From: Pseudohongiella sp.
GTDB taxonomy: Bacteria > Pseudomonadota > Gammaproteobacteria > Pseudomonadales > Pseudohongiellaceae
NCBI GenBank assembly: GCA_030651695.1
Contig: JAUSCD010000012.1
Span: 62,001-126,000, forward strand
Reading direction: 5' to 3'
Length of the DNA: 64,000 bases
Position numbers and translations under genes: made by a program. Shown here in pieces: positions 56,509 through 58,830 of this stretch (the first letter of the stretch is position 1; every line of letters begins with the position of its first letter). The notes under the pieces are model-generated. The model had not been told where the DNA came from. It was given only the letters and a program-made list of their open reading frames with translations, and made no database searches.

Positions 56509-57417
56509 TCAGGGCAGTTCGGGTTGGTAATGTTTTTTAATGAATTCACCCAGCATTGTAAACTCATCCTGACGCGTACTGGCTTTGCGCCAGACCAGAC
56601 CAATCTGTCGGGAACTGCGGGCATCCATGGGCATGGTTTTAATACGGGTGTTCTTTAAAAGTTGCGAATGCACTGCCATGGCAGGCAGATACGTAATTCC
56701 GAGATCAGCATCGACCATCTGCACCAGCGTCAGCAATGATGTAGCGGTAATACTACTGACTTTGTCGGCATTCTGGATATTACAGGCTGACAGTGCGTGG
56801 TCACGCAGACAGTGACCATCTTCCAGCAACAATATACTGTCGCTCGGCATGGTGCTGACGCTGTAGTGAGCAGGATCAATAAATGCAGTCTTCTGCTGAT
56901 AAGCCAGATAAAACCGATCGTCGAACAATACCATTTCAGCGGTATTACGCAGTTCGTAAGGCAGCGCAATAAGTATAAGATCAAGCTCACCATCCATCAG
57001 ACGATCGTAAACGCGCTCTGTCAGATCTTCTTTAAGGTGCAGTTTCAAATCCGGGTATGCCTTGCGCAAGGCAGGTAGTAATCGGGGCAACAAAAACGGC
57101 GCGATGGTGGGGATCACACCAAGTTTCAGTTGCCCGGTCAATGGTTGCTGATTGCCTTTGGCGATATCAACAAGGTCCTCAAGATCCCGCAATACAACAC
57201 GCGCCTGCTTTGCGATTTCGCGGCCCAGCGCAGTTACTGTGACATTCTTGTTAGTGCGATCAACCAACTGGATATTCAACATATTCTCCAGCTCTTTAAT
57301 CGCCACGCTGAACGCCGGCTGAGAGACAAAACACGCATCCGCCGCTTTGCCAAAATGCTCGTGCTGATCCAGCGCCACAAAATATCGCAGCTGTTTGGTA
57401 GTTGGTAGATGAGTCAT
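56509..57417 (-). CDS. oxyR: Hydrogen peroxide sensor/activator OxyR
   Basis: 302 aa LysR-type regulator. The winged helix is AADACFVSQPAFSVAIKELENMLNIQLVDR. The redox pair is intact: Cys203 and Cys212 in GHCLRDHALSAC, with the same nine-residue spacing as E. coli Cys199/Cys208. It would activate peroxide-defence genes when oxidised. No katG, ahpC or recG is adjacent. The 160 nt downstream hold no gene. Upstream on the other strand lies a candidate small RNA. LysR regulators commonly repress their own promoter, placed here in the shared 350 nt gap. Confidence 0.93.
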   Translation of the reverse strand: MTHLPTTKQLRYFVALDQHEHFGKAADACFVSQPAFSVAIKELENMLNIQLVDRTNKNVTVTALGREIAKQARVVLRDLEDLVDIAKGNQQPLTGQLKLGVIPTIAPFLLPRLLPALRKAYPDLKLHLKEDLTERVYDRLMDGELDLILIALPYELRNTAEMVLFDDRFYLAYQQKTAFIDPAHYSVSTMPSDSILLLEDGHCLRDHALSACNIQNADKVSSITATSLLTLVQMVDADLGITYLPAMAVHSQLLKNTRIKTMPMDARSSRQIGLVWRKASTRQDEFTMLGEFIKKHYQPELP

Positions 57418-57477
57418 TGGCGCTCCCGAAAACGCGGATCAGCTAACCATGATGATTGCCAATTATTTACGATTGAT

Positions 57478-57504
57478 TTGTCATATCACTCTAATACATA
57501 TAAT
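57478..57504 (+). promoter_or_regulatory. Candidate sigma-70 promoter divergent from oxyR
   Basis: A perfect -10 box TATAAT (57499-57504) is preceded by TTGTCA (57478-57483) at 15 bases, or by TTGATT (57473-57478) at 20. The -35 spacing is poor, which is common for activator-dependent promoters such as those bound by OxyR. An ATTG-C-CAAT palindrome lies about 25 bases upstream. I did not find the full four-part OxyR ATAG/CTAT pattern. Confidence 0.45.
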
Positions 57505-57510
57505 CGATTT

Positions 57511-57658
57511 TATCTATGCCACCAAGAGGCCTAGGCTTGTTCCCAGTCCTGATCAGAAAGCGCAGAAGTCGCATGTTCTGGTCATTGCAGGAAGATATAC
57601 AGGTTTGTAACGATCCCTCTTGGCCGGCATGGTGCCCAAACACCTTCCGGCCTTTTTT
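57511..57658 (+). ncRNA. Candidate small RNA divergent from oxyR
   Basis: From the predicted start (about 57511) to the terminator T run at 57658 is about 148 nt. A long-range stem CCAAGAGG (57522-57529) with CCTCTTGG (57616-57623) closes most of the RNA, and a strong terminator follows. No ribosome site or conserved peptide supports coding; the 62-codon frame present ends beyond the terminator. The position equals that of oxyS in enteric bacteria, but I see no sequence likeness to OxyS, 6S or SRP RNA. Hfq is encoded in this window. Function is inferred only. Confidence 0.45.
57622..57658 (+). terminator. Rho-independent terminator of the candidate small RNA
   Basis: The stem is GGCCGG (57622-57627) with CCGGCC (57647-57652), and an inner stem GGTG/CACC (57631-57634, 57641-57644) lies inside a small internal loop. 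Six T follow directly (57653-57658). This is a good terminator far from any coding stop on the plus strand, which is the main reason to suspect a short transcript. Confidence 0.75.
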
Positions 57659-57769
57659 ATGGCCGGGTTTTGATCGTGCGGGGCCGGGATCGACTTGCAG
57701 TTAGACTGGAGATTGCTGTTATACTGCCGGCCGTCTGTATTTTTGACTGACCGCCACGGGTGACAGTAA

Positions 57770-58192
57770 ATGATGTTTAACACCATGACTCATTCATTCC
57801 AGCGCCTGCTGATTTCCTGCCTGTGTATGGCAGCTCCTGCTATTTGTCTGGCAGATGACTCAGCCACTCAGGGCTACTCATTTGACAGCAGCGCCTGGCA
57901 AGGTGAATGGCAGGCTGAGAACACGACATTCATTCTGCGTGTTATACCTGAAGGAAACCGTTTTGCTGTAGAACCGATACAACCCCTGGGTTTGGACTGG
58001 ACAAGCAGCAATGGCATCATCAATGGCAACAGCGGCACCATCAATGTGGAATATCAGGGAGTTACCGCGTTGGTTCTGGTGCAGCTGATCACACACAGCA
58101 GCGCCATTGTGCGCTCTATGTCCTGCCAGCCTGATTATCATGTTGTGTGCACCCTGGTGAGAAACCAGCAGGCGTTGTTCATCAAACAATAA
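57770..58192 (+). CDS. Exported protein of unknown function
   Basis: 140 aa with a signal peptide (LLISCLCMAAPAICLADD). ATG codons at 57770, 57773 and 57785 are all possible; the ribosome site is weak. The mature part is small and beta-rich (AWQGEWQAENTTFILRVIPEGNRFAVEPIQPLG) and has two Cys near the C-terminus (MSCQPDYHVVCTLV) that may form a disulfide. I do not recognise the family. A likely promoter, TTGCAG with TTATAC 18 bases on, lies at about 57695-57725. It converges with the ClpP gene. Confidence 0.65.
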   Translation: MMFNTMTHSFQRLLISCLCMAAPAICLADDSATQGYSFDSSAWQGEWQAENTTFILRVIPEGNRFAVEPIQPLGLDWTSSNGIINGNSGTINVEYQGVTALVLVQLITHSSAIVRSMSCQPDYHVVCTLVRNQQALFIKQ

Positions 58193-58242: not shown

Positions 58243-58830
58243 TTAAGTCAGTTCCTGCATGCTACGAATGCACCGACCCACAATGCCATACTCTATGGCC
58301 TCGTCTACAGACATCCAATAATCACGATCAGTATCTTTGGCAACCCGCTCAATCGGCTGACCGGTTTCATCAGCTATCAACTGGTTTATGCGTGCACGCA
58401 TTTTGATAATCTGCTCAGCCTGAATCTTGATATCCGAGGCGCTACCGCGCGAACCGCCCGAAGGTTGGTGCACCAGAAAGCGCGTATTGGGCAAAGCAAA
58501 GCGGTGCTCTTTTTTGGCTGCCAGGTAAATAGTGGTTGCAGCGCTTGCTACCCAACCGGTGCCTACCACTCTTACTTCGGGCTCAATGAATTTGATGATG
58601 TCGTATATGACGTCACCTGATTCAACATGTCCGCCCGGTGAGCTGACATAAATCGTGATAGGGTCGCTGCTTTCCGCTGCCAGCGCTAACAGGCGCTCAG
58701 TGACACTGCGCGCAATACGCTCGTTGATTTCGCCGAATATTGTCACTGCACGTGCTTTGAACAGCTTTTCATCCAGCAATCGGCTGGGAGCAGGCGTCGG
58801 TGTTTCCTTGGTGGATGACATCTCTAACAT
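58243..58830 (-). CDS. ClpP-family serine protease
   Basis: 195 aa. The catalytic triad is in place: Ser96 (TGWVASAATTIY), His121 (RFLVHQPSGG) and Asp170 (DTDRDYWM), at the same spacing as E. coli Ser97/His122/Asp171. Around the active Ser the usual GQAASMG is replaced by GWVASAA, and there is no clpX, tig or lon neighbour, so this is probably a second, specialised ClpP rather than the main one. GGAGAAA precedes the ATG. It would still form a tetradecamer needing a Clp ATPase encoded elsewhere. Confidence 0.87.
   Translation of the reverse strand: MLEMSSTKETPTPAPSRLLDEKLFKARAVTIFGEINERIARSVTERLLALAAESSDPITIYVSSPGGHVESGDVIYDIIKFIEPEVRVVGTGWVASAATTIYLAAKKEHRFALPNTRFLVHQPSGGSRGSASDIKIQAEQIIKMRARINQLIADETGQPIERVAKDTDRDYWMSVDEAIEYGIVGRCIRSMQELT

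What the first reader, a model, noticed from the sequence alone, without database searches (positions are those of the whole stretch)
57473..57658. Possible OxyS-like position: a promoter-to-terminator unit divergent from oxyR
Seen: TATAAT at 57499-57504, a long-range stem closing about 100 nt, and a strong terminator with six T ending at 57658, with no supported gene between. Known: in E. coli the sRNA OxyS is divergent from oxyR and peroxide-induced. Inference: an unrelated sRNA may fill the same regulatory place here, acting with the Hfq encoded in the window.
Basis: partly seen in the sequence, partly recalled or inferred. Interest (0 to 1): 0.72.

Follow-up and report, generated by a model that had tools for sequence, protein, structure and literature searches.

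The report
Unrelated OxyS-like RNA beside oxyR
Bacteria of the genus Pseudohongiella and close relatives appear to carry a small non-coding RNA, with no detectable likeness to E. coli OxyS, in the same place beside the peroxide sensor gene oxyR and behind a control region with the same spacing, which suggests that a peroxide-triggered RNA may have arisen there independently.

Summary
In 26 of 29 related oxyR gaps (Pseudohongiella and two sister genera) the same order recurs: operator, -10 box, a short variable RNA body, a CCCUC/CCCUU motif, and a terminator with compensatory changes. The operator's three inverted repeats and the -10 box have the spacing of the E. coli oxyR-oxyS region (22, 9 and 22 bp). 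The likely -10 is therefore TAGGCT 57532-57537 with the start near 57546; 'TATAAT' 57499-57504 is operator (TATAAT in 6 of 29). The long-range stem is not conserved, and its 5' arm lies upstream of that start. No Rfam family matches, OxyS included, and no conserved peptide was seen. In OxyR relatives outside this clade the slot holds dps-like (5 loci) or peroxiredoxin (1) genes; in three of the five dps cases the -10 has the same position. Best reading: an OxyR-activated small RNA of about 113 nt that works like OxyS without being a detectable homologue, probably pairing with mRNAs with Hfq. Expression, OxyR binding, Hfq binding and targets are untested; two target predictions were negative.

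The parts
57471..57487 (.). Operator inverted repeat 1 (17 bp, centre 57479)
   Evidence: Best mean match to GATAG-N7-CTATC of 52 centres scanned over 29 gaps; invariant columns.
57493..57509 (.).
   Evidence: Second best centre; TATAAT in 6 of 29.
57502..57518 (.). Operator inverted repeat 3 (centre 57510, 9 bp from repeat 2), overlapping repeat 2
   Evidence: Third best centre.
57532..57537 (+). Likely -10 box TAGGCT (a weak one in this species, 3 of 6 consensus letters)
   Evidence: A [T/C]AnnnT box at this offset (18 gaps) or one base further (8 gaps), 26 of 27 examined.
57546..57658 (+). Predicted small RNA, about 113 nt; start inferred from E. coli oxyS geometry
57590..57595 (+). GGAAGA, local form of a GGAAGG motif (GGAAGG in 16, GGAAG in 18 of 26 transcripts)
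57615..57621 (+). CCCTCTT, candidate pairing segment (CCCT[C/T] in 25 of 26 transcripts)
   Evidence: Identity 0.87 over 57616-57625 in 13 g1 gaps.
57622..57658 (+). Intrinsic terminator: hairpin 57622-57652 with C-rich loop, T-run 57653-57658
   Evidence: Changes on both sides in 7 of 11 pairs over 14 rows and in 3 of 8 pairs over 12 g5 rows.
56509..57417 (-). oxyR, OxyR-type LysR regulator, 302 aa
29938..30213 (-). hfq, possible partner protein

Best explanation
The gap encodes a small non-coding RNA (about 57546-57658) transcribed away from oxyR. OxyR is predicted to bind the three-repeat operator 57471-57518: by analogy with E. coli, reduced OxyR on repeats 1 and 3, oxidised OxyR on repeats 1 and 2, activating the -10 box at 57532-57537 when peroxide is present. 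The RNA ends at the terminator 57622-57658. It most likely acts in trans by base pairing through CCCUCUU and/or the C-rich terminator loop, probably with Hfq, to tune mRNAs during peroxide stress. Shown by comparison: the unit, its control geometry, the terminator, lack of a conserved peptide. Inferred: OxyR binding and the redox shift, peroxide induction, Hfq binding, pairing with targets.
For: Unit present in 26 of 29 gaps beside this OxyR. Operator: 18 invariant columns; the three best centres of a scan for GATAG-N7-CTATC are 22 and 9 bp apart, as in E. coli oxyR-oxyS (-66, -44, -35; passages of PMC5002191). Repeat 3 to -10 is 22 bp in both (E. coli -10 read by eye). -10 in 26 of 27. An operator profile is reached by at most 1 of 60 shuffles upstream of 7 of 12 katG2 and 10 of 13 katG1 genes, and 0 of 15 dps genes. 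Terminator compensatory changes. Conservation peaks at operator, GGAAGG, CCCTCTT and terminator, falling to 0.28-0.36 over 57666-57715. ORFs not conserved. OxyR cysteine pair in 36 of 37 proteins, the other cut short. hfq present.
Against: No transcript data. The window's -10 is weak (3 of 6) while TATAAT upstream is perfect, so a second promoter in the six genomes that have it is possible. G013 lacks the box at the usual place and its RNA would be only about 53 nt. The unit is lost in 3 of 29 gaps. No target support: seed complement near ATG 88 against 86 control matches; six candidate mRNAs without signal. The number of further pair types in the g1 terminator is not above shuffles (363 of 500). 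The RNA body is hardly conserved.
Confidence: 0.7

Rival explanations
1. The unit is a leader and attenuator of the downstream gene (57770-58192 in the window): the OxyR promoter makes a leader that ends at the terminator unless a signal opens it.
For: A + strand gene follows in g1; the window's long-range stem would compete with the terminator.
Against: The competing stem is not conserved. Downstream genes differ: the 140-aa ORF in g1, an NnrU-type gene in the g5 locus tested (L042). A TATACT box between terminator and ORF recurs in g1 (57720-57725), a consensus match only.
Confidence: 0.12
2. A decaying relic of a lost divergent gene (dps), with promoter and terminator left over and no RNA function.
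For: Relatives have dps in the slot; the body is variable and the unit is lost in 3 of 29 gaps.
Against: -10, CCCUC/CCCUU motif and a terminator with compensatory changes persist across three genera. The body shows no dps 5' UTR likeness once ribosome-site letters are masked.
Confidence: 0.1
3. A true but strongly diverged OxyS, inherited from a common ancestor with enterobacteria.
For: Same place and same control spacing.
Against: No OxyS match over cut-off in 15 genomes, none at all in the window's genome, E. coli positive; none in 15 loci, E. coli 139.5 bits. OxyRs with dps or peroxiredoxin lie outside the clade, but E. coli OxyR was not placed in that tree.
Confidence: 0.08

Closest known systems
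OxyS (Rfam RF00035), enterobacterial peroxide-induced sRNA
   Same: Divergent from oxyR; three-repeat operator with 22 and 9 bp spacing and the same distance to the -10; about 110 nt in the window species; own terminator; Hfq encoded.
   Different: No covariance-model match; lengths from about 53 to 124 nt across species; other motifs; outside the enterobacteria, where PMC5793797 (passage) reports OxyS homologues in 10 genera.
dps divergent from oxyR in other Gammaproteobacteria (L026, L027, L028, L079, L080)
   Same: Divergent slot opposite a related OxyR; in L026, L027 and L028 the -10 has the same offset (sequences).
   Different: The product is a protein (PF00210 over cut-off; Dps models best but below their cut-offs in the two tested). 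L079 reads GATCAT at the offset and L080 lacks the anchor, by eye. In Pseudohongiella a dps-like gene lies elsewhere without such an operator.
pgdX divergent from oxyR in Haemophilus influenzae
   Same: An OxyR-controlled gene in the divergent slot (PMC3511568, passages).
   Different: A peroxiredoxin-glutaredoxin protein, not an RNA; L081 here is of this kind.

Membership tests
OxyS (RF00035) | Match to the OxyS covariance model over its gathering score | tested here: not met
   0 of 15 genus genomes over cut-off, E. coli positive; 0 of 15 loci, E. coli 139.5 bits; no OxyS match up to E 10 in 57400-57800.
OxyS (RF00035) | Gene divergent from oxyR | tested here: met
   26 of 29 gaps.
OxyS (RF00035) | Control by OxyR through three inverted repeats at fixed spacing | tested here: met
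   Geometry only, 22 and 9 bp; binding not testable here.
OxyS (RF00035) | Induction by peroxide | not testable with these tools
   No expression data.
OxyS (RF00035) | Pairing with fhlA, nusG and binding of Hfq | not tested
   Known for OxyS from passages; not examined here.
Intergenic trans-acting sRNA | Own promoter and terminator, no conserved ORF, conserved above its surroundings | tested here: met
   By sequence comparison only.
Intergenic trans-acting sRNA | Conserved pairing with target mRNAs | tested here: inconclusive
   Two limited predictions, both negative; no genome-wide target search was possible.
OxyR | Redox cysteine pair (C-N8-C) | tested here: met
   GHC-N8-C in 36 of 37 proteins; L028 is cut short.
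OxyR | NCBIfam OxyR model (NF008361) over its cut-off | tested here: not met
   Best-scoring model, 236.8 bits against a cut-off of 329; best PDB match is an OxyR, 7l4s, E 8.3e-70. Hence called OxyR-type.

The most novel reading that the evidence does not exclude
A second, independently evolved OxyS: in the Pseudohongiella lineage a non-coding RNA took over an ancestral OxyR-controlled promoter that drives dps in relatives, so that an oxidative-stress RNA beside oxyR arose at least twice behind a control region with the same spacing, while dps is found elsewhere without that operator.
Probability: 0.5. Interest if true: 0.75.

Novelty: new variant of a known kind. Interest (0 to 1): 0.6.

Why it matters
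If true, the slot opposite oxyR is a place where an RNA or a protein can sit behind one conserved redox switch, and OxyS is not a one-off of enterobacteria. Two unrelated RNAs under the same switch would allow a direct test of what a peroxide-induced RNA has to do: shared targets, shared logic, or neither. It also marks an RNA family that no model of Rfam release 15 finds at gathering score.

Tried and rejected
Long-range stem as RNA structure: not conserved. TATAAT 57499-57504 as the promoter: 6 of 29; a secondary promoter in those six genomes is not excluded. Peptide: ORFs not conserved, 3 of 26 transcripts have none of 9 codons or more, and many that start behind GGAAGG run through the terminator without a stop. 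Seed CAAGAGGG within 12 bases of ATG in 15 genomes: 88 matches against 86 for the reversed control pattern, no support. Duplex energies of the RNA against start regions: mean z katG1 -0.79 (n 8), katG2 0.20 (11), dps 0.69 (13), oxyR -0.50 (13), orfB -0.35 (1), clpP 0.15 (7), against letter shuffles, no support. RNA 5' part derived from the dps 5' UTR: 3, 0 and 5 of 27 rows with at most 10 of 200 shuffles as good, vanishing (0, 1, 0) when AGGA is masked, not supported. Hairpin GGAAGG with CCCUU in g5: 75% of cells paired, no change on both sides, left open. R1 over 293 genomes of the order: besides six genus genomes only weak matches, G301 5.5e-4, G021 0.003, G341 0.006, not inspected. Operator-plus-promoter pattern: 18 of 137 family genomes, once each, at the oxyR loci; it misses the window because it asked for TTTAAT.

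Rows dropped: G006 (72% complete) has no match at the cut-off. L038, L045, L046 left out of transcript sets; L045 and L046 also out of the -10 count; L049 out of alignment A2. One search did not score katG2 of L172, L174 and L184 (no usable start found). One search printed 14 of 30 ferritin-family loci (L113-L127 and L138 not). One search skipped rows whose start could not be placed.

Full report
Place. The window lies in a 3.86 Mb genome (G000); the closest named records are Pseudohongiella MAGs (Pseudohongiellaceae, Pseudomonadales). oxyR (56509-57417, minus) faces a 352-base gap, then a 140-aa ORF of unknown family (57770-58192, plus; no Pfam or NCBIfam match) and a ClpP-type gene (58243-58830, minus).

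Conservation. A DNA search with 57420-57700 matched 15 of 56 genomes: 14 of the genus, the own genome included, and one weak order-level hit (G044, E 3.7e-4) not followed. An OxyR 76-85% identical to the window's exists in 13 other genomes of genus g1, in 14 of genus g5 and in one of g7. Of these 29 gaps, 26 hold the unit with a run of six or more T; L038, L045 and L046 do not (for L046 a T-run further on was judged not to be the unit). The operator has 18 invariant columns over 29 gaps. Mean pairwise identity in 13 g1 gaps is 0.85-0.96 over 57486-57515, 0.06-0.19 over 57556-57585, 0.73 over 57586-57595, 0.87 over 57616-57625 and 0.28-0.36 over 57666-57715.

Control region. For the published dyad GATAG-N7-CTATC, the three best mean scores among 52 centres over 29 gaps lie at 57479, 57501 and 57510 (7.00, 5.83 and 5.45 of 10; the fourth, 57490, has 5.07), 22 and 9 bp apart. 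Passages of PMC5002191 give repeats centred -66, -44 and -35 from the oxyS start in E. coli, the same 22 and 9 bp, and describe oxidised OxyR on four adjacent grooves and reduced OxyR on two pairs one turn apart. On the E. coli K-12 record the third centre lies 22 bp before the -10, which I read by eye as GATAAT; here 57510 to 57532 is also 22 bp. The start is therefore put at 57546. A [T/C]AnnnT box stands at this offset in 18 and one base further in 8 of 27 gaps examined; G013 is the exception. I saw the dyads by eye, read the E. coli figures and ran the scan. No chance probability was computed for the coincidence.

TATAAT stands at that position in 6 of 29 gaps and lies within repeat 2. The stem's 5' arm (57514-57529) would not be transcribed from 57546, and it forms only in part in relatives (58.8% of cells).

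The RNA. Predicted lengths are about 53 to 124 nt in 26 gaps. The terminator shows changes on both sides in 7 of 11 pairs over 14 rows (71.4% of cells paired) and in 3 of 8 predicted pairs over 12 g5 rows. Model R1 (12 g1 rows plus G020) matched 16 of 137 family genomes: its 13 training genomes, G013 at the oxyR locus (E 0.004), and two g8 genomes weakly (0.001, 0.003). Model R2 (12 g5 rows) found those 12 and, full length at the oxyR locus, two g1 genomes (G008, G010) at E about 9e-6; but a hairpin-only match elsewhere in G003 scored the same (9.4e-6) and weaker ones are common, so this recovery is suggestive, not proof. Folded from 57546, the RNA has a 5' hairpin, a weak middle hairpin and the terminator (z -1.97, 8 of 200 shuffles as good).

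OxyR link. Best PDB match is an OxyR (7l4s, E 8.3e-70); the cysteine pair is kept in 36 of 37 proteins, L028 being cut short; the NCBIfam OxyR model is the best but below its cut-off. The operator profile (27 distinct sites) applied to 220 bases upstream is reached by at most 1 of 60 shuffles in 7 of 12 katG2 and 10 of 13 katG1 regions, and in 0 of 15 dps regions (the window's own katG2 is not among the 7). Three g1 genomes have a second, 43-45% identical OxyR-type protein at the cut-off used (G008, G010, G013), so katG sites may belong to either.

Evolution. In a maximum-likelihood tree of 37 OxyR-type proteins the 29 of the three genera form one group (support 91/93, below the tool's star), apart from those with divergent dps-like genes (L026, L027, L028, L079, L080), a peroxiredoxin-glutaredoxin gene (L081), a LysR-type gene in the same direction (L082) and rubrerythrin (L058). 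Outgroup branches are long and the root is a midpoint. In L026-L028 the dps -10 has the same offset of 26 from the anchor. A dps-like gene sits elsewhere in the genus without the operator. This fits one gain of the RNA in the slot and losses in at least two lineages. It does not prove independence from OxyS, since E. coli OxyR was not in the tree.

Function. hfq is present. No target is supported. The mechanism after transcription is inference from OxyS.

Literature. Seen: listings; passages of PMC5002191, PMC5793797 and PMC3511568. None of the listed titles and abstract openings describes an oxyR-divergent sRNA in Pseudohongiella or its relatives. The library holds open-licence papers only, the ten papers listed do not name Pseudohongiella, and the three were not opened.

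Noticed in passing
L158-L177 (katG loci, genus g1): Most genus genomes carry two KatG-type genes; one begins with a signal-like N-terminus (by eye), suggesting an exported catalase-peroxidase.
   Followed up: partly
G008 C5:178658-181976 (L159), similarly G010: A second OxyR-type gene (45% identical) lies divergent from a katG, so this genus may use two OxyR-type switches.
   Followed up: no
L058 (G113): A more distant OxyR-type gene in the same family is divergent from a rubrerythrin gene.
   Followed up: partly
57770-58192: A 140-aa ORF, conserved next to the unit in the genus and one gene further away in g5, matches no Pfam or NCBIfam family.
   Followed up: partly
L128-L142 (dps-like loci): A TGTGTTAAGCT element recurs upstream of dps in many species and may be its own promoter.
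   Followed up: no
L038 (G011) and L039 (G004): Sister genomes: one has lost the terminator block, the other has a degraded hairpin, so the RNA may be decaying in this branch.
   Followed up: no
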